A stretch of DNA of 20,099 nt, taken from positions 1 to 20,099 of the forward strand of contig JAUXHY010000002.1 of the NCBI GenBank assembly GCA_030621275.1. The letters are read 5' to 3'. The DNA is from a bacterium (GTDB lineage Bacteria; Fidelibacterota; Marinisomatia; Marinisomatales; JAHJCW01). The notes below the pieces were generated by a model. It did no database searches and was not told the DNA's origin. It was given only the letters and a program-made list of their open reading frames with translations. The translations under genes and the position numbers were made by a program. Below are positions 5,616 through 18,890 of this stretch, one piece after another; within the stretch, counting starts at the first letter, position 1, and each line of letters opens with the position of its first letter.

Positions 5616-7289
5616 ATGAGTAATGGACATACAAAAAAACATGGATTAGGTGAAGTAGATAATCATTTAGCTTCTACAATAGAAGAATTAAATGGGTTAG
5701 TTAGTGACGGGGTTTTAGTTTCAACCCCCGATGGTGGTGCAACCGTTGATAATAATATTATACCAATTGATAAAAATACTGTACCATTAATAGTAATAAT
5801 TGGTCAATCTAATGCTGATGGTAGAGGTGGGTTAACTAATCTATCTGAAACATTGGTTGATTTTTATTCAGAAGATCATCCTCACTTAAAAATATATTAC
5901 AAGCCAGCAGTTAAAACTGGTGGAACAGTAACGTCAGGAACAAAGATTGATGATGGTGAATGGTATACCTTAAAAAATGATCATTCTGATATAGACAAAT
6001 ACACAAGTATGAATATTGGTAATGTTGATAGTACAGTTGCTATTCAGTCAGCCTCACAACATGGACCAGAATTACAGTTAGGATATGATTATTTTCAAGA
6101 ATTTGGTCATAACGAACTCCGTATAATTAAATTTGCTGTAGGCAGTTCATCACTCAAAGATCATTGGCTTCCTACTGATGGATTGTATGATACTTTTATG
6201 AGATACGTTTATCAACCTGCTATTCGTGCAATCTTACGAGAAGGTAAAAAACCAACTTTACTTGGAGTTCTATTTAATCAAGGTGAAGGTGATGCTAATA
6301 GTACAAATTCTCCACTATATCAAGCTAATTTAGAAACATTAATTAGTCAATTCAGGGCTGACTCAGGGTTTGAAAATGCAACATTCAACATTGTACAACT
6401 AAGTGATTTTAAGTCGGACTCTGACTGGTTGAATGTAAAAGCGGTACAAGCAACAATCTCAAGTTCAGACATATATACTAATTTAATAGTCACTGATGGT
6501 AGTGATGATTTACCGTCATTCTTTAGACGAGACGGTGATGAAATTCATTTTTCTACTCAAGGTCAAAGCCAAATAGTTGAACAAGTGTGGCCTCTATTAA
6601 ATTATACATCAAATTCTGATTATACCAAGTGTCATGCAGTTGAAACGTTTGCGGCATATACTGGAACGCCTGGAACTTTCTTGGATTGGAATTGTGCCAC
6701 AGAGAATGGTAAGTGGGGGTCGCTAGTCATCGACACACTTGACGGCGAGAAATGCTGTTCGTGGCAAATAGATAATAGAGGTGCAAGACCTCTACAAAAT
6801 AGTCATACTGTTCGCTCCGAGTTGTTGAACGTAACTGATGATTTTGAGATGGTAATGACTTCAAACGGATATACGGACAGTTTTACCAAGCCATCGATTC
6901 TTTTTAGAGGGGTATGGGCGGCCAACAATGATAACCCTACTGCTGGATATTTATTCCAGATAAAAGCGGGGGACCGAACAATTAAAATCTTCAAAAGAGA
7001 AGGTGGTACTTGGAATGGGTTTCCAGATATTTCGGATTATTATTATACGTTCGAAGAAACAGACTGGGATGCTTTAGGTGATGTAAAATATTTCAAGGCA
7101 CGTCTCAGCGGTAGTACATTAGAGTTCTATTCAAGCGTAGATCAAGGCAAGACGTGGACAAATAGAGTAACTACAGTAGATACCACATACACTACAGGGG
7201 ATGCATTCATAACACTATTCAACGGGTTGATATTAGCAGGTGATGCACACTATTGGTTCAAAGAAATTTACGGCGACACAAAACTTTAA
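5616..7289 (+). CDS. Tail fibre/spike with SGNH (sialate O-acetylesterase-like) domain and C-terminal jelly-roll
   Basis: A 557-residue protein in three parts. Residues 7-30 hold a LG-x-x-D-x-HLAST-x-EEL motif shared with the next gene, probably the virion anchor. Residues about 56-330 form an SGNH hydrolase of the carbohydrate acetylesterase (SASA) type: block I IIGQSNADGRG with Ser65, Gly176 in FAVGSSS, block III FNQGEGDAN with Asn221 and Glu224, and block V DEIHFSTQGQ with Asp308 and His311. All catalytic positions are present. Residues about 335-557 look like a jelly-roll/concanavalin A-like domain, rich in Trp and Tyr, ending HYWFKEIYGD. The expected reaction is removal of O-acetyl groups from host surface glycan during adsorption. 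The ATG follows the previous stop by two bases. The C-terminal third is richer in GC than the esterase part, suggesting module exchange near 6690. Confidence 0.8.
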   Translation: MSNGHTKKHGLGEVDNHLASTIEELNGLVSDGVLVSTPDGGATVDNNIIPIDKNTVPLIVIIGQSNADGRGGLTNLSETLVDFYSEDHPHLKIYYKPAVKTGGTVTSGTKIDDGEWYTLKNDHSDIDKYTSMNIGNVDSTVAIQSASQHGPELQLGYDYFQEFGHNELRIIKFAVGSSSLKDHWLPTDGLYDTFMRYVYQPAIRAILREGKKPTLLGVLFNQGEGDANSTNSPLYQANLETLISQFRADSGFENATFNIVQLSDFKSDSDWLNVKAVQATISSSDIYTNLIVTDGSDDLPSFFRRDGDEIHFSTQGQSQIVEQVWPLLNYTSNSDYTKCHAVETFAAYTGTPGTFLDWNCATENGKWGSLVIDTLDGEKCCSWQIDNRGARPLQNSHTVRSELLNVTDDFEMVMTSNGYTDSFTKPSILFRGVWAANNDNPTAGYLFQIKAGDRTIKIFKREGGTWNGFPDISDYYYTFEETDWDALGDVKYFKARLSGSTLEFYSSVDQGKTWTNRVTTVDTTYTTGDAFITLFNGLILAGDAHYWFKEIYGDTKL

Positions 7290-10406: not shown

Positions 10407-11000
10407 CTAAATTAAATAGTGCTTCTTTAAAAATATATCAATTGATGTTATTAAATAATCAGGAAAATTCTTATTTAAACAATGTTCATACAAATTATTC
10501 ATATCAAAAATAATTTTAATAAGTGATTCTGTTTTTTTAACAAAAGTCTCACCTACTATATCAATAATTATATCTTCAGCATCGACAGCATCAATATTTT
10601 TTGGTGAATAATATATCGCATCTTGCTTTTTTTGTAAATCCTCCCAAGCTGCATTAATTGCATCATCAAGAAATTTTGGGACAGTTAACACACTCTCATC
10701 AATTATTCTATATTCAGTGTTAATATTATTCATATAAGCAGGATCTAAATGTTGATTAGCCTTTCTCCAATTATTATTCAAATCGCAAGATTTTATTATG
10801 ACTAATTTTTGCCCAAAGGCACAATATTGTTTAGCAGATTTATATACACAATCACAAAATAATTTACGATTTTTTGATGACTTAATATCAATTAGCATCA
10901 TATTATCAGTGACAGAAATGAAAACAGACATTTCATCTAAAAAATTTAAGAAGGCTTCAGAACAAATCGTTTCAAATTTTACAATTTTGATAATTGACAT
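10407..11000 (-). CDS. Hypothetical protein in the nuclease cluster
   Basis: A 197-residue soluble protein with alternating hydrophobic strands in residues 1-75 and a mostly helical C-terminal half. The family is not recognised and no catalytic motif stands out. Its ATG (11000-10998) shares one base with the stop of the upstream PD-(D/E)XK gene (TAATG), and its own stop lies inside the ribosome site of the downstream gp62-like gene. It is therefore the middle member of a tightly coupled minus-strand set (RNase H, nuclease, this protein, clamp-loader-like), which suggests a DNA replication or repair role. Confidence 0.6.
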   Translation of the reverse strand: MSIIKIVKFETICSEAFLNFLDEMSVFISVTDNMMLIDIKSSKNRKLFCDCVYKSAKQYCAFGQKLVIIKSCDLNNNWRKANQHLDPAYMNNINTEYRIIDESVLTVPKFLDDAINAAWEDLQKKQDAIYYSPKNIDAVDAEDIIIDIVGETFVKKTESLIKIIFDMNNLYEHCLNKNFPDYLITSIDIFLKKHYLI

Positions 11001-11551
11001 TATTTTCCTAATCGTTCTTTTACGATATTTGGTGTTACATTTTCAAAAAAATCTTTCTCCATTACAAACACAGCTGGAGGATAATCATTTTCTGTAGATG
11101 GCCAAGACAATGTTAAGGTTCTTGACTCAATTAATACGTCCTTTAATTTATCGTATGTTAATTGATCCATAGCTAAAAATACGCCACAATTATGTTTTTT
11201 GAATATTAACAATGGTAATTTTTCTACAGTTCTTGCATCTCTTAAACATTGGTCCCAAAATAATTTTATTTCATCTGATTTTAGACCTAGTAAGTGTTTA
11301 TCAAATCTTGTTCCTTTGTAACCATTTTTTAATTCGATAGAAAATATATCGGTTAGAAAATTACCATCTGGATGGATTGAATGTATGTCGCCAGCTAGAT
11401 TTTTACCATCCTGAAACATTGATCGTTGCAATAATCCACCAGATGAAATTTGACGCCAGAATAATAATGGATCACCTGTACCATTTATCCATTTGGATAA
11501 TTTTTTACTCATATCGCGCTCAAATGCACTTCCTTTTGAACTTTTACTCAT
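11000..11551 (-). CDS. PD-(D/E)XK-fold nuclease (resolvase-like)
   Basis: A 183-residue protein with the order of motifs of Holliday-junction-resolvase-like PD-(D/E)XK enzymes: GSAFERDMSKKLSKW (Glu11) in the first helix, a FWRQISSGG strand/turn with Arg33, Asp55 in AGDIHSI, and the signature E73-L-K75 in FSIELKNGY. The expected activity is metal-dependent cleavage of branched or otherwise structured DNA. T4 uses the unrelated endonuclease VII (gp49) for branch resolution, so this could be a replacement, but another nuclease role is possible. The ATG lies 8 bases inside the upstream RNase H gene, with GAGGAT as ribosome site, and the stop overlaps the next ATG. Confidence 0.65.
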   Translation of the reverse strand: MSKSSKGSAFERDMSKKLSKWINGTGDPLLFWRQISSGGLLQRSMFQDGKNLAGDIHSIHPDGNFLTDIFSIELKNGYKGTRFDKHLLGLKSDEIKLFWDQCLRDARTVEKLPLLIFKKHNCGVFLAMDQLTYDKLKDVLIESRTLTLSWPSTENDYPPAVFVMEKDFFENVTPNIVKERLGK

Positions 11552-12913: not shown

Positions 12914-13834
12914 CTAAAATTTTAAAATATTTTCATCAAGACGACTATAACCATCAATTAATACATTATCAAATGATTCAAATATTTTTCGTGCTGATAA
13001 AATTTGAAAATATGTTTTCGATTTAACTGAATCTAATTTATCGAAATTAAAATCCATATTACACCAAATTGGTCTATAATATAAAGTCATATCGTTAGGA
13101 ATAATCATTAATTGACCAGTAGTTCTAAGAATCGTTTTTCCGAATGTTTTTTCTATTCTTAATGGATTCATTTGAGGATTTGGATTAGAACGATCTGAAA
13201 CAGCATCTAACATTTTATATGGATCTTTCACTTTTTTTAGATCTTTTAAGGAACGATTCATTCTAGATATAGAACTTTTATAGGCTAATCGTTCATTTTC
13301 ATCTTCAGAATTTGGATTATATCCAGATTTAATATCAACACCAAGATTTGTTCTTACTGCTATTTCATCCTTTTTAATGTTTCGAGCTTTATAAATATAT
13401 TTTTCTTTGTCATCGAGTGTGGCTTCTAATAAAATACAATGTTCTTTATCAAAAATAAAGGTATTACCTTTTAATTCTCTTTTAATAAGGAATTTAAGTG
13501 CATCTTCAACGGTCTTTTCTAGTAATGAAAATCTTATTGATTTACCATCTGGGGAGAAAAAATCAGGATCACCACTACGTGGACGACCGGAATGGCCAGA
13601 ATCTAAAAATCCTTCCTTTTCATCCTTTTTGCCATTTACAGATGCAGAGATGACAGAAACACCATATTCGTTAATTCCTTCAGTGTATTTAGTTACAACA
13701 TCCCAAATATATAATCGTTCTATTTGTTTTCGATTTGATTGTTTTATTTTAATCGTCGGTCGATAGTTTCTATCTCTATTTTTTACACCAACAAAACCGA
13801 CATCTTTAAAATATTTTATAGCTATTACACACAT
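12914..13834 (-). CDS. Ntn-type cysteine hydrolase (peptidase C45 / choloylglycine hydrolase-like)
   Basis: A 306-residue protein starting Met-Cys: MCVIAIKYFKDVGFVGVKNR. Removal of Met1 would expose Cys2 as N-terminal nucleophile. The VKNRDRNY segment (Asn19, Arg20, Asp21) and the GINEYGVSVIS segment (Asn55-Glu56) are where choloylglycine hydrolase, acyltransferase (C45) and TANGO2/NRDE-like families have their catalytic Arg/Asp and Asn/oxyanion regions. GNTFIFDKEHCILLEA (123-138) and VRTNLGV (160-166) also fit this fold. The substrate is unknown; amide bonds of acylated amines or peptides are typical. The start is fixed by the GGGAGAA site and the Cys2 requirement. It may be co-transcribed with the tail tube and neighbouring genes. 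The fold is fairly sure, the exact reaction is not. Confidence 0.7.
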   Translation of the reverse strand: MCVIAIKYFKDVGFVGVKNRDRNYRPTIKIKQSNRKQIERLYIWDVVTKYTEGINEYGVSVISASVNGKKDEKEGFLDSGHSGRPRSGDPDFFSPDGKSIRFSLLEKTVEDALKFLIKRELKGNTFIFDKEHCILLEATLDDKEKYIYKARNIKKDEIAVRTNLGVDIKSGYNPNSEDENERLAYKSSISRMNRSLKDLKKVKDPYKMLDAVSDRSNPNPQMNPLRIEKTFGKTILRTTGQLMIIPNDMTLYYRPIWCNMDFNFDKLDSVKSKTYFQILSARKIFESFDNVLIDGYSRLDENILKF

Positions 13835-15307: not shown

Positions 15308-18169
15308 TTAAAAGAATTCATCGTCTTCATCATACATATATTCGTCGTCTTCATCATAATCATATTCATTTTCATTGTCATCCTCATCTAATATTGTTGT
15401 TATATTTTTATTTTTAATTGATTTAAAAATGGAGTCAATTTCTTTATCATATAAACCATTAGTTTCGCTTTCGTTACTATCAATAGTTAATACACTAGGA
15501 ATAAATTCAAGGCCTATTTGTTTAACACTTTCAATTATAAGAAATTCTTCAGTATATTCTTGATCCAATATAAGCATCGCCCAAACTAATGCCATTACGT
15601 TATCATCATAATGTGAACTACCAATAGCATTATACGTATATTTTCCAGATTTAGTAGATCTACGTTCAAATGTAAGTAATTCACTTAATGTATCTGGATT
15701 TTTTACTATTAAATTTATACCTTTATTATCAAATAATTTTTTTAAATTACGACATGCCTGTGATTTTAAAGTGTTATTACTTAAAATACCAAAATCTTTA
15801 CTTTCAACACTCGCAATATTATAATAGTCATATATTTCATTCATAAATCTGCATGTAGTTGAACCAATTCCATTATATTCTATCATCACTATACCCATAT
15901 TATACATATTTGCCAATTTAACTGATAGATATGCTAATTCAGTTGGTGATATTTTATTACATGAAAAATGTGCCACTTCATCAATTATTTCACCTGGACG
16001 AGTTATATCATAAATATCTATAACAGATTTGTCCTTTCCAGCACCATCAGCTACGTCAATACCCAAAACATAAATAGCTTTTGGTTTTGGTTGTTTCCAT
16101 ATTTTTATATCATTATCATATATCGTAATAGTTTCATATTTAATATTTTTATTATTTTTAATCATTTCATCTATAATTTTTGCAGAAATTAATGACTGCG
16201 ATGAACCTATAAAACTATTTCCAAATTCTTGTGCGAATCTTCGGTCATCTCCATTAAAAGATTCTAATTGTTCCTGCTTCCATCTTTCATCTCTACCTGG
16301 TACGTCAAACCAATCAATCCTAACGGTATTCCACCGTATACCTTTTTCTTCAGTCTTTTTCCTTTTTAATCCGGCAGTATACATTTCATGAAATAAATTA
16401 CCAATCCCATTTGGTGTTGATACTAAAATACATTTTGATTTTCCACTAGTATCCGAAGAAATTGTTGGATATACTGCAGTCCAAAGGTTGTCCATAACGT
16501 TTGGAGCAATAAATGCACACTCGTCGATTATAATACAATTATGTGATTTAATTCCATTAGTAATAAAACAACTGTCGTATCCAGAGTCTACTATGTCGTA
16601 TACATATTCATGTTCTTTCGCTGGAATAGTTGTAATTTTAGTAATATTAAGGTTACCATTATCAGATATGATTAAGTCATTGGTCTCAAAGTCTTTAGCT
16701 AACTTCGCCATATTATTAGAATCATAAAATAAATGATTGGGTGTTGATGCTATTTTTTTACCATTAATTAGCTCAAATTGAATAATATCCCCAATATTTT
16801 TGTTTCGCTTTATACCTGCAAATGGTTCAAATCCATTAGGTGTTAAAATACGCAAACCATTATTAGTAGCAGTGTCAATAAAAAATATATTACTAACATT
16901 GTCACCAAATATATCCATTAGTTTTTTAATATAATTATCAAATTTAATATTAGTTTTTATATTATCCCAGCATAAAAGTACCTTATAACCTTTGTCAATA
17001 TACGTTTCATATTTTAGTTTATCTTTTAATTTCTGTTTATAATTTAAATGATAAGCTTCATTTACTTCTACTATTATTTTATTTTCTACGTTTATACCAT
17101 CTGGAAAAAAACCACCAGAAAATAGTTTATTACGTTGGAAAGTTAAATCAACATGTTCTTCGACATATCGTATAAGTTCTTCCTCATGCTTACCTACATT
17201 TGTCATATAGCCAGATGAGTTTGTTGAATTATTACGTAATCGCTTCTCTATGTTTTTTCTATATTTATTATTGCATTTTATAGAACATGTAATAGGGTAC
17301 AATTGAGTAGGTGTATTAAAAGAATATTTTAAAGTTTTATCGCAATGACCACATTTGCTATACTTATCAATTTCATATTTAATGTGATATAACATTTGAC
17401 TAGTTTTTATCCCTTCTATATTTTTATCTTGTATAATTTCTAAAAACTTACTAATAATAATTTTTTTTAATTTAATAGAATCATTTAAAATACGTACAAT
17501 TAATCGTCGTAATTTTTTATCATTATATGCATTCATAATCTTTTCAAAATTATTGAATCTTGTATTATTCCTACTAATAGTTTCACATTTTTTACAGCAA
17601 TATTTAAATGAACTAAATTTATTTTTATTAGAATTAATTATAGGCATTTCGCAAATAATACATTTATGTATGGTAGTTTTACCATTTGCTACATAAGTAT
17701 ATCTCCCATAAAGGGATGTATTCAACGGCATAAATTGTGTCATACTATGTATGATGTTAATTAAAATATCTGATTTTTTTACTTTTTTAAACATAATCGG
17801 ATACGTAAAGGCTTCGATAATAAATTTTCTATCTAAACTTTTAAGATTTGATTTAAATGTAGGTTCCCTAGTTGAAATGTAACCGTCTTTAAAACTCTTA
17901 AATGCCATAAAATGTGACGTAATTGGATCTTTAGGTATTTCATAAATTTCATAAAAGGCATGCCAAGCACGTTGGGTTAAACTATCACTAATACCATATA
18001 TTTTTGATGTTTTGCTATTTACCCAATCATTTACTTGCTTGTTTTGTATTAATAATGAACATACTGAATGTTGGATGGAGAGTTTACCTAAAGCATTATT
18101 TATCGTATCAAAAAATTTGGATTTAATTGATATATTAATAATATTTTTATTCGTTTTATCTGTAACCAT
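15308..18169 (-). CDS. 17: Homing endonuclease-intein C-fragment-terminase large subunit C-terminal part
   Basis: A single 953-codon frame in three parts. Residues 1-433 are a putative homing endonuclease: two zinc-finger-like sites (Cys170/173/191 or 192/195 and Cys273/276/295/299) and a PD-(D/E)XK-type core with HEEEL (328-332), Asp357 in FPDG, Glu368 in VEVNEAYH and a final GYKVLLCWD. Residues about 435-544 are an intein C-fragment (block B TPNH at 476-479, end ITNGIKSHN). Residues 545-953 are terminase: Walker B IIIDECAF (546-552), STPNG coupling motif, and nuclease acids Asp705 (GIDVADG), Glu764 (IEYNG) and Asp855-Asp856 (HYDDNVMALVWA), matching T4 gp17. The tail is very acidic. The frame begins at ATG 18169, 13 bases after the preceding TAG and in another frame, with AGGGGTG as likely ribosome site. 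Trans-splicing would release the 409-residue extein. Confidence 0.85.
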   Translation of the reverse strand: MVTDKTNKNIINISIKSKFFDTINNALGKLSIQHSVCSLLIQNKQVNDWVNSKTSKIYGISDSLTQRAWHAFYEIYEIPKDPITSHFMAFKSFKDGYISTREPTFKSNLKSLDRKFIIEAFTYPIMFKKVKKSDILINIIHSMTQFMPLNTSLYGRYTYVANGKTTIHKCIICEMPIINSNKNKFSSFKYCCKKCETISRNNTRFNNFEKIMNAYNDKKLRRLIVRILNDSIKLKKIIISKFLEIIQDKNIEGIKTSQMLYHIKYEIDKYSKCGHCDKTLKYSFNTPTQLYPITCSIKCNNKYRKNIEKRLRNNSTNSSGYMTNVGKHEEELIRYVEEHVDLTFQRNKLFSGGFFPDGINVENKIIVEVNEAYHLNYKQKLKDKLKYETYIDKGYKVLLCWDNIKTNIKFDNYIKKLMDIFGDNVSNIFFIDTATNNGLRILTPNGFEPFAGIKRNKNIGDIIQFELINGKKIASTPNHLFYDSNNMAKLAKDFETNDLIISDNGNLNITKITTIPAKEHEYVYDIVDSGYDSCFITNGIKSHNCIIIDECAFIAPNVMDNLWTAVYPTISSDTSGKSKCILVSTPNGIGNLFHEMYTAGLKRKKTEEKGIRWNTVRIDWFDVPGRDERWKQEQLESFNGDDRRFAQEFGNSFIGSSQSLISAKIIDEMIKNNKNIKYETITIYDNDIKIWKQPKPKAIYVLGIDVADGAGKDKSVIDIYDITRPGEIIDEVAHFSCNKISPTELAYLSVKLANMYNMGIVMIEYNGIGSTTCRFMNEIYDYYNIASVESKDFGILSNNTLKSQACRNLKKLFDNKGINLIVKNPDTLSELLTFERRSTKSGKYTYNAIGSSHYDDNVMALVWAMLILDQEYTEEFLIIESVKQIGLEFIPSVLTIDSNESETNGLYDKEIDSIFKSIKNKNITTILDEDDNENEYDYDEDDEYMYDEDDEFF
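15311..16537 (-). other. 17: C-extein: terminase Walker B and nuclease domain
   Basis: Codons 545-953. The first residue, Cys, would be the +1 nucleophile for splicing; T4 gp17 has a hydrophobic stretch and IDECAF at the same place. The ATPase lacks Walker A, so this part cannot work unless joined to the upstream piece. Confidence 0.8.
16538..16867 (-). other. Intein C-fragment 2 (AceL-TerL-like, long C-part)
   Basis: Residues about 435-544 begin LRILTPNGFEPFAGI, include block B (STPNHLF), AKDFETNDLI, block F (EYVYDIVDSGYDSCF) and block G (ITNGIKSHN, penultimate His, terminal Asn) before Cys. From memory, the AceL-TerL split intein C-part has the same order (ILSPNGF..., SINHPFG, ...YITNGVVSHN). 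No block A is present here; it is in the upstream gene. Confidence 0.85.
16868..18169 (-). other. Putative zinc-finger PD-(D/E)XK homing endonuclease domain
   Basis: Residues 1-433 of the 953-codon frame, lying between the N- and C-parts of intein 2. It has two Cys-pair fingers and a nuclease core of the Vsr/DUF559-like type (Asp357, Glu368, Lys380-Lys384 region). Endonuclease genes of a Vsr-like family are known between the halves of fractured, split-intein phage genes. Here the domain is in frame with the intein C-part rather than free-standing. Confidence 0.65.
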
Positions 18170-18182
18170 TATTTTAACACCC

Positions 18183-18290
18183 CTAAGAAAAATCTGTAAT
18201 GTTCGGAATATTTTCTATATGTGAAATTGGACACTTATAGAGCATTCCATCTTGAGCTTCAAGAATAATATCACTATCAGCCGTCACACA
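18183..18290 (-). other. Intein N-fragment 2 (35 residues)
   Basis: Begins with Cys201 after Asn200 of the extein; block A-like CVTADSDIILEAQDGMLYKC, then PISHIENI and a TAG stop. An N-part of this size, with block B in the other fragment, matches the atypical early split of AceL-TerL rather than the usual split near residue 100. Confidence 0.8.
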
Positions 18291-18890
18291 ATTAGATGAC
18301 GTTCCTCTAGCTGCATCTGAAGCTGTAGCAAAGGCCTGAATTTTACAACCATTCGTAAACTCAATAGTCCGTTTATTCCATGTTACTACACCTGGTTTTA
18401 ACCACTTAGGTAGTAATTCAAATGCCATTCTTAAATGTCCCATTATTTCTATAGCTATACTACCTTTATTTGCTAATATTAATACACGTTTATCAGTATT
18501 AAAACATATCAACCAACAAGCGAATATGGAATATGCAGTAGTATTATGACTTAGTATGCCGTCAGCGTAATATCTATGATCAGTGGAATTGACGGCAATA
18601 TCATACATATTAGAAAACTTATTCGTTGGATAAACTTCAGTAATTGATTCAAGACCATCATTAGTAATTATTTCGTCACCGATATTTAAATCTTTAGTAA
18701 ATATTTCATTATAATATTTATCAAAAATGATATGAGTATCAGCACACTTAATGGTATGATTGGTTGTTTTAATTATCCATTCTTCGTATTTAATAGTTTT
18801 ATTTGATGATAATATAGGTTGCCAACCGTCATCAGTCATTATTTCATACTTATTTGTTGGAACTATTTCTATAAATTTTTTTTCTTTCAT
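18183..18890 (-). CDS. 17: Intein C-fragment 1-terminase ATPase segment-intein N-fragment 2
   Basis: A 235-residue precursor in three parts. Residues 1-116 are an intein C-part: KYEIMTDDGW, block B (NHTIKCADTHIIF, His53), KDLNIGDEI, block F (MYDIAVNSTDHRYYADG) and end ILSHN. Residues 117-200 are terminase (TTAYSIFACW to DAARGTSSN) matching T4 gp17 from KTTVVAIFLAHF to DAVRGNS, including LANKGS and ELLPKWLKPGVV-WNK. Residues 201-235 (CVTADSDIILEAQDGMLYKC...) are an intein N-part starting with Cys, cut by a TAG. The +1 residue after intein 1 is Thr117, so this intein splits the Walker A motif (GK/TT). The first half of Walker A is not in the window. A late promoter lies 77 bases upstream. The ribosome site is weak. 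Confidence 0.85.
   Translation of the reverse strand: MKEKKFIEIVPTNKYEIMTDDGWQPILSSNKTIKYEEWIIKTTNHTIKCADTHIIFDKYYNEIFTKDLNIGDEIITNDGLESITEVYPTNKFSNMYDIAVNSTDHRYYADGILSHNTTAYSIFACWLICFNTDKRVLILANKGSIAIEIMGHLRMAFELLPKWLKPGVVTWNKRTIEFTNGCKIQAFATASDAARGTSSNCVTADSDIILEAQDGMLYKCPISHIENIPNITDFS
18291..18542 (-). other. 17: Middle extein: terminase ATPase segment (84 residues)
   Basis: Residues 117-200, from the second half of Walker A (TT) to the residue before the IIIDECAF Walker B strand. Both ends are intein junctions, so this piece joins the terminase only after two splicing reactions. Confidence 0.8.
18543..18890 (-). other. Intein C-fragment 1 (116 residues, Walker A insertion site)
   Basis: Starts at the gene's own ATG with KEKKFIEIVPTNKYEIMTDD and ends SHN before Thr. 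It resembles C-terminal parts of inteins known at the GK/TT site of phage terminases. Its block A (starting Cys or Ser) is missing: the 150 bases upstream hold a promoter and terminator, not an intein-N. Confidence 0.8.

What the first reader, a model, noticed from the sequence alone, without database searches (positions are those of the whole stretch)
15308..18890. Three-piece large terminase needing two protein trans-splicing events
Two adjacent minus-strand genes carry terminase segments bounded by intein ends. Gene one reads intein C-part (SHN)-T-T... terminase ...RGTSSN-C intein N-part, stop; gene two reads intein C-part (SHN)-C-IIIDECAF terminase. Intein 1 splits Walker A (GK/TT), intein 2 sits just before Walker B. 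The N-terminal third of the terminase with Walker A and intein-N 1 is absent from the window. ATPase function then requires joining three polypeptides in order. Split inteins in phage terminases are known (AceL-TerL); a double fracture producing a middle piece flanked by two inteins is not something I recall.
Basis: partly seen in the sequence, partly recalled or inferred. Interest (0 to 1): 0.95.

Follow-up and report, generated by a model that had tools for sequence, protein, structure and literature searches.

The report
Phage motor stitched from three proteins
In this phage contig the gene for the DNA-packaging motor is broken into separate pieces whose ends carry halves of two inteins, so the motor is predicted to work only after at least three proteins are spliced together, and the same layout recurs in other environmental phages.

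Summary
Confirmed. Gene one (18890-18183, minus) is a C-half of intein 1, an 84-residue middle piece of a T4-type large terminase (TerL), then a 35-residue N-half of intein 2. Intein 1 splits Walker A; intein 2 sits just before Walker B. The N-terminal piece is neither in this complete 20,099-base contig nor found in the bin, where no other part of this phage was found.

The layout recurs: 23 other non-redundant middle pieces carry two split-intein halves; L064 and L158 hold all three TerL pieces with breaks at exactly the window's two positions; a 306-kb phage contig scatters four pieces over 61 kb on both strands. An occupied/empty pair (L047/L042) shows a 1,031-base cassette (intein N-half, endonuclease-like ORF, intein C-half) lying exactly between two TerL codons.

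Splicing itself was not measured; it is inferred from catalytic residues, purifying selection and isolates whose TerL halves lie 25 kb apart. New variant of the known fractured-gene kind.

The parts
18183..18890 (-). Gene one, 235 aa: intein C-half 1, TerL middle piece, intein N-half 2
18543..18890 (-). Intein 1 C-half, residues 1-116, ending SHN before Thr117
18291..18542 (-). TerL middle piece, residues 117-200: from the Walker A Thr to just before Walker B
   Evidence: PF03237; T4 gp17
18186..18290 (-). Intein 2 N-half, Cys201 to Ser235, then stop
   Evidence: 18/33 identical to the contiguous site-2 intein of P0105; Cys201 invariant in 18 aligned proteins
15308..18169 (-). Gene two, 953 aa: endonuclease-like region, intein C-half 2, TerL C-terminal piece
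16880..18169 (-). About 430 endonuclease-like residues fused before intein C-half 2
   Evidence: DUF559 20.9 bits alone; profile of three relatives matches PDB 3r3p 'Mobile intron protein' E 7.5e-4
16538..16873 (-). Intein 2 C-half, about residues 433-544, ending SHN before Cys545
   Evidence: Cat intein E 3e-5, profile E 5e-12; 35/105 identical to the P0105 intein
15311..16537 (-). TerL C-terminal piece, residues 545-953: Walker B and nuclease domain
   Evidence: T4 gp17 E 2e-25; best homologue 44% identity
18980..19007 (-). Terminator-like hairpin with T run between the upstream ORF and gene one
   Evidence: 12-pair stem, 3 G-C pairs; 4 terminator-like sites found in the region against 1.1 expected

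Best explanation
The two genes encode the middle and C-terminal pieces of one T4-type large terminase, and the working ATPase is predicted to form only after two protein trans-splicing reactions join them to an N-terminal piece that is not in this contig. Shown from sequence: the intein halves and their end residues, the break inside Walker A and the one just before Walker B, and the endonuclease-like region fused to the second C-half. Inferred: a partner of about 130 residues, ending RQxGK and a Cys-initial intein N-half, would splice with gene one and complete the P-loop; gene one's own N-half would splice with gene two, place Walker B behind the P-loop and set free the endonuclease-intein protein. 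Inferred origin: a pre-split cassette (intein N-half, endonuclease, intein C-half) enters the gene as one DNA unit, once per site, and each entry adds one polypeptide.
For: Both TerL pieces are collinear with gp17. Relatives with all three pieces: L064, L158 at exactly the same two breaks; L046, L066 nearly so. His115, Asn116 and Cys201 invariant in 18 aligned proteins. Intein C-half 1 under purifying selection in split relatives. Sister P0105 has intein 2 uncut. Occupied/empty pair L047/L042. Isolated Campylobacter phages with only two TerL pieces, 25-27 kb apart on opposite strands. No intron RNA.
Against: No N-terminal partner found for this phage. In 28 of 32 relative groups with both pieces the N-piece ends within the 1,209 bases that the contig still shows upstream, yet it is not there; so it must have moved or been lost. 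Gene two's PF03237 score only equals the cut-off. No splicing was measured. Whether inteins 1 and 2 avoid cross-reaction is untested.
Confidence: 0.85

Rival explanations
1. The phage has an intact TerL elsewhere and these pieces are remnants or spare copies.
For: Most of the phage genome is not in hand; the bin shows no tail sheath.
Against: No other TerL in the bin. The reading frames, intein end residues and Walker B are whole. In the phages CP30A and NCTC12673 the fractured TerL pieces are the only TerL hits.
Confidence: 0.07
2. The pieces assemble without being ligated, and the intein halves are idle.
For: No splicing assay exists for these proteins.
Against: The break runs through the Walker A motif; splice residues are invariant in 18 aligned proteins; dN/dS of intein C-half 1 is 0.013-0.084 in seven related pairs.
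Confidence: 0.04
3. The gene is rejoined at the RNA level by group I or II introns, as reported for terL of Jug phages (passages of PMC12363816).
For: Such splitting of terL is reported.
Against: No Rfam match at gathering score in the window, and only sub-threshold, implausible ones near the genes; the borders carry intein ends.
Confidence: 0.01
4. Assembly error or decayed gene.
For: The contig comes from a fragmented metagenome bin of 274 contigs.
Against: L114, from an unrelated contig, shows the same border at site 2 (short intein N-half, stop, then the endonuclease-intein-TerL gene); 12 other proteins share the gene one layout.
Confidence: 0.03

Closest known systems
Fractured genes with split inteins (Dassa et al. 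2009; recalled, not held)
   Same: A conserved phage enzyme is broken by a split intein, with a Vsr-like endonuclease; a later fractured phage gene with a GIY-YIG ORF is described in passages of PMC7891396.
   Different: Two breaks in one gene, a middle piece between two inteins, and the endonuclease fused to the intein C-half instead of free-standing.
AceL-TerL, GOS-TerL and the engineered Cat intein (passages of PMC11766414)
   Same: Split inteins in phage TerL with a short N-half (25 and 37 residues there, 35 here); intein C-half 2 matches Cat.
   Different: Other insertion site: from recall their extein is QEFE/C, here the second break is SSN/C; described there as single splits.
VidaL atypically split intein (PDB 6vgv)
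   Same: Closest solved relative of intein C-half 1.
   Different: Its N-half of 16 residues (passage of PMC13014065) is far shorter than the N-halves seen at Walker A in relatives.
Walker A intein of Kuttervirus TerL (Salmonella phage moki, Escherichia phage LHE287)
   Same: Same position in Walker A; about 42% identity over residues 5-211 of gene one.
   Different: Contiguous intein in one gene; no intein before Walker B. Only these two records were opened.
Pseudomonas phage PspYZU05 TerL
   Same: N gene with intein N-half, endonuclease gene, C gene with intein C-half.
   Different: One break only, at IDE/C inside Walker B.

Membership tests
Fractured gene with split intein (definition recalled) | Conserved enzyme gene broken at an intein, halves on separate ORFs | tested here: met
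   Second break. First break: only the C-half is present.
Fractured gene with split intein (definition recalled) | Free-standing endonuclease gene between the halves | tested here: not met
   The endonuclease-like region is in frame with intein C-half 2; 13 bases separate gene one and gene two
Fractured gene with split intein (definition recalled) | Vsr-like (EDxHD) endonuclease | tested here: inconclusive
   DUF559 20.9 bits against 20.6 alone, 19.5 in the whole protein; 3r3p E 7.5e-4 with a three-sequence profile; that 3r3p is I-Bth0305I is recalled; the structure model was too poor to use (pLDDT 48.6)
Class 1 split intein | Cys at N-half position 1 | tested here: met
   Cys201 of gene one for intein 2; intein 1 N-half is not in the contig
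Class 1 split intein | C-half ends His-Asn before Cys, Ser or Thr | tested here: met
   HN/T for intein 1, HN/C for intein 2
Class 1 split intein | Splices in trans | not testable with these tools
   No assay was possible
T4-type large terminase | Terminase_6N domain and gp17 similarity over ATPase and nuclease | tested here: met
   PF03237 27.7 and 22.0 bits, cut-off 22; gp17
T4-type large terminase | Complete Walker A | not testable with these tools
   Its first half would lie on the missing N-piece
Gene split by a group I or II intron | Catalytic intron RNA between the pieces | tested here: not met
   0 Rfam matches at gathering score

The most novel reading that the evidence does not exclude
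TerL is a serially fractured gene: pre-split intein-endonuclease cassettes home into its ATPase core again and again, so that the packaging motors of many environmental phages exist only as two to four polypeptides, sometimes scattered and shuffled across the genome, and it is the set of inteins, not the order of the DNA, that holds the order of the protein. Where the endonuclease is fused to an intein half, each act of motor assembly would release one homing endonuclease.
Probability: 0.6. Interest if true: 0.87.

Novelty: new variant of a known kind. Interest (0 to 1): 0.78.

Why it matters
It would give natural three- and four-part protein ligations whose inteins differ widely within one gene (C-halves 17-28% identical within five loci), which is raw material for multi-part ligation. 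It makes the origin of split inteins testable, because occupied and empty sites exist in nearly identical phages. It also warns that TerL, often used as a marker gene for phages, can lie in fragments that a gene finder names hypothetical or misses.

Tried and rejected
N-piece in the bin: PF03237, a full TerL, a 103-residue TerL N-terminus and a 12-row N-piece profile found none beyond the two window genes. The profile does work: 5 of 5 other records matched. No tail sheath in the bin (control rang in 3 of 14 genomes). No gp23 either, but that control rang nowhere, so nothing follows. Of 150 genomes searched with gene one, 3 matched, the bin included; the other two carry intein-free TerL.

Frameshift between gene one and gene two: the ATG is in the +1 frame, 16 bases after the first base of the stop; L114 has the same frame without a shared slippery sequence, and of the six other close junctions three use one frame and three the other. 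Not needed.

Calling 'intact' sites from HMM alignments misled, because alignments run a few residues into inteins; replaced by counting ORFs. There I left out by name four ATPase-only TerL-like ORFs (L028, L030, L046, L059), and grouping at 95% identity of the middle region ignored split pattern (L047, three pieces, is filed with L042, two pieces). L010, L157, L159 and L186 break at stops inside TerL without intein ends, perhaps another genetic code; the A2-scan count keeps L010 apart as 'five ORFs'. One search listed 25 non-redundant middle pieces with the window; I dropped L144 (its ORF starts at the contig edge and its sister L145 has a contiguous intein), which leaves 24; one of these (L081, states 207-277) has an unclear left border. 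I first took L046 and L066 for exact matches of the window's two breaks; one search shows their second break two residues earlier. One fetched Klebsiella phage record (L101) looked split only because of a masked stretch; set aside. Fold search with the poor endonuclease model (pLDDT 48.6) gave no match at E 0.001.
Full report
What is there. The window is one whole contig (20,099 bases, G000:C229) of a 1.54-Mb metagenome bin in 274 contigs, 70.7% complete. It carries T4-like phage genes: portal (phrog_213, E 6e-92), tail tube (phrog_45), exonuclease (phrog_107), sheath stabilizer (phrog_227) and clamp loader (phrog_225). On the minus strand gene one (18890-18183) and gene two (18169-15308) follow each other with 13 bases between stop and ATG. 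A terminator-like hairpin lies at 19007-18980, upstream of gene one, so gene one may begin its own transcript.

Anatomy of gene two. The intein C-half ends HN before Cys545; residues 545-953 are TerL from just before Walker B to the end (gp17 E 2e-25; best homologue P0001, 44% identity). A sister of gene one, P0105 (53% identity), has the same split start at Walker A but a contiguous 137-residue intein at the second site. Its start matches the window's N-half (18 of 33) and its rest the window's C-half (35 of 105). So intein 2 of the window looks like that small intein cut open near residue 35, with about 430 residues placed before its C-half.

The added region. Scanned alone it matches DUF559 at 20.9 bits (cut-off 20.6); in the whole protein it stays under the cut-off (19.5). 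With two relatives (P0143, L114) its profile matches PDB 3r3p, 'Mobile intron protein', at E 7.5e-4 (from recall, I-Bth0305I, an EDxHD endonuclease). The same order, endonuclease-like region, intein C-half, TerL, occurs in P0143, on a 172-kb contig, and in L114, where a TerL gene with N and middle parts and a short intein N-half ends 22 bases before the ATG; L114 scores 24.5 bits for DUF559. At exactly this site others differ: L064 has a GIY-YIG domain fused to the intein N-half (SegE_GIY-YIG 29.3 bits, cut-off 25); L158 has a separate 386-residue ORF between the halves (not domain-searched); P0105 has no endonuclease. In L046, whose break lies two residues earlier, a separate ORF has NUMOD3 over and GIY-YIG under the cut-off. 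The endonuclease thus seems exchangeable and able to join either half.

Is the double break unique? No. Gene one finds 37 other proteins at E <= 0.001; 12 of them (P0106-P0117) read as intein C-half, TerL middle, intein N-half; His115, Asn116 and Cys201 are invariant in the 18 sequences aligned. Of 90 sequences (window, L006-L094) 86 had TerL; they form 55 groups at 95% identity of the middle region. Of the 54 groups without the window 42 span the whole TerL: 10 are one ORF with contiguous inteins, 21 are two pieces, 10 three pieces, and 1 (L010) is five ORFs that I do not trust. The set was drawn by likeness to intein C-half 1, so these are not frequencies in nature. Over both scans 24 non-redundant middle pieces between two split halves remain, window included (after dropping L144). 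L064 and L158 have N, middle and C pieces in order with breaks at exactly the window's positions; L046 and L066 have the second break two residues earlier, and L066 has a third, contiguous intein. L192 and L193 have four pieces in a row.

Scattered pieces. In the 306,333-base contig IMGVR_UViG_3300035665_000001 four TerL pieces lie at 169,376-170,020 (-), 184,945-185,316 (-), 200,315-201,181 (-) and 230,130-230,759 (+). Each open end carries an intein half. One C-half ends Lys-Asn, not His-Asn, as does the same junction in L192. The N-piece match runs past a stop; its ORF has 147 codons. A TerL profile found no other copy, but the record may be incomplete. In the isolated Campylobacter phages CP30A and NCTC12673 the two TerL pieces lie 25 and 27 kb apart on opposite strands, with no other hit to a full TerL query; intein ends were read in the C-piece of the first and the N-piece of the second. 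As these phages grow, joining of unlinked pieces very likely works; this is inference. Against an easy reading for the window: in 28 of 32 relative groups with both pieces the N-piece ends within 1,209 bases upstream (range -56 to 1,518), the length that the window still shows, and there it carries two other ORFs.

How fractures arise. L047 and L042 are 98.8% and 99.9% identical on either side of a 1,031-base stretch found only in L047. L042 reads RQEFE/TEFIGSS; L047 has between these two codons a 34-residue intein N-half with stop, an ORF of 210 codons with a GIY-YIG match just under the cut-off (20.3 bits, 22.6), and an intein C-half ending HN. The cassette turns a two-piece TerL into a three-piece one, or its exact loss did the reverse; the direction was not tested. 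L012/L015 differ by 714 bases inside intein 1 and L053/L060 by about 426 bases at site 3. Two such entries, at Walker A and before Walker B, would give the window's state.

Is it functional? Intein C-half 1 has dN/dS 0.013-0.084 in seven pairs among L028, L030, L034, L036 and L040 and 0.061 for L070/L082, all split there; of the listed pairs with a value, one (L155/L167) is above 1, on five differences, and the next highest is 0.54. The window itself has no relative close enough for this test. Within a locus, intein C-halves 1 and 2 are 17-28% identical (5 loci, window 26%), against a median of 48% (range 40-64%, 55 pairs) between loci for site 1; site 2 is looser (median 34%, range 25-52%, 21 pairs). 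That suggests, but does not show, that the inteins of one gene do not cross-react.

What is known. TerL split inteins with short N-halves (AceL-TerL 25, GOS-TerL 37 residues) and the engineered Cat are described in passages of PMC11766414, and AceL-TerL and VidaL in passages of PMC13014065. A fractured phage gene with a GIY-YIG ORF between the halves appears in passages of PMC7891396; a split PolB intein with an HNH ORF in passages of PMC6892783. Jug phages split terL into 2-3 fragments, laid to group I introns (passages of PMC12363816); no intron RNA is found here. Dassa et al. 2009 is recalled, not read. In ten searches I saw no listing that announces a gene naturally broken by two or more split inteins; the library holds open-licence papers only, so this is weak evidence of absence.

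Verdict. A real and recurrent variant of the fractured-gene kind.

Noticed in passing
L028:2095-2793, L030:6501-7199, L046:8013-8642, L059:1362-2054: TerL-like ORFs of 210-233 codons with an uninterrupted Walker A and little beyond the ATPase part, lying just upstream of the TerL N-piece (L028, L030, L046) or of the intein 1 C-half gene (L059); phrog_5989 at E 8e-31, 5e-37 and 1e-22 for three of them. Function unknown.
   Followed up: partly
window 12914-13834 (-): Ntn-hydrolase-like protein (PF03417 AAT, 26 bits, cut-off 23.2) in a phage contig.
   Followed up: no
window 5616-7289 (+): Carbohydrate esterase domain (PF03629 SASA, E 4.5e-22), perhaps part of a tail fibre.
   Followed up: no
window 11000-11551 (-): Putative PDDEXK nuclease (PF24608, E 2.7e-22).
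   Followed up: no
P0130, P0139, P0140: Proteins with AAA or Clp domains that match intein C-half 1 of gene one; in P0130 the intein end is followed by TELVK, which looks like another Walker A break.
   Followed up: no
L010, L157, L159, L186: TerL ORFs interrupted by stop codons without intein ends; perhaps a reassigned stop codon.
   Followed up: no
L086: TerL split at Walker A on a 104-kb contig binned with the archaeon Nitrosarchaeum; possibly an archaeal virus or a misbinned phage.
   Followed up: no
L012 and L015: Two contigs whose TerL intein 1 differs by 714 bases, as if an endonuclease part were present in one and absent in the other.
   Followed up: partly
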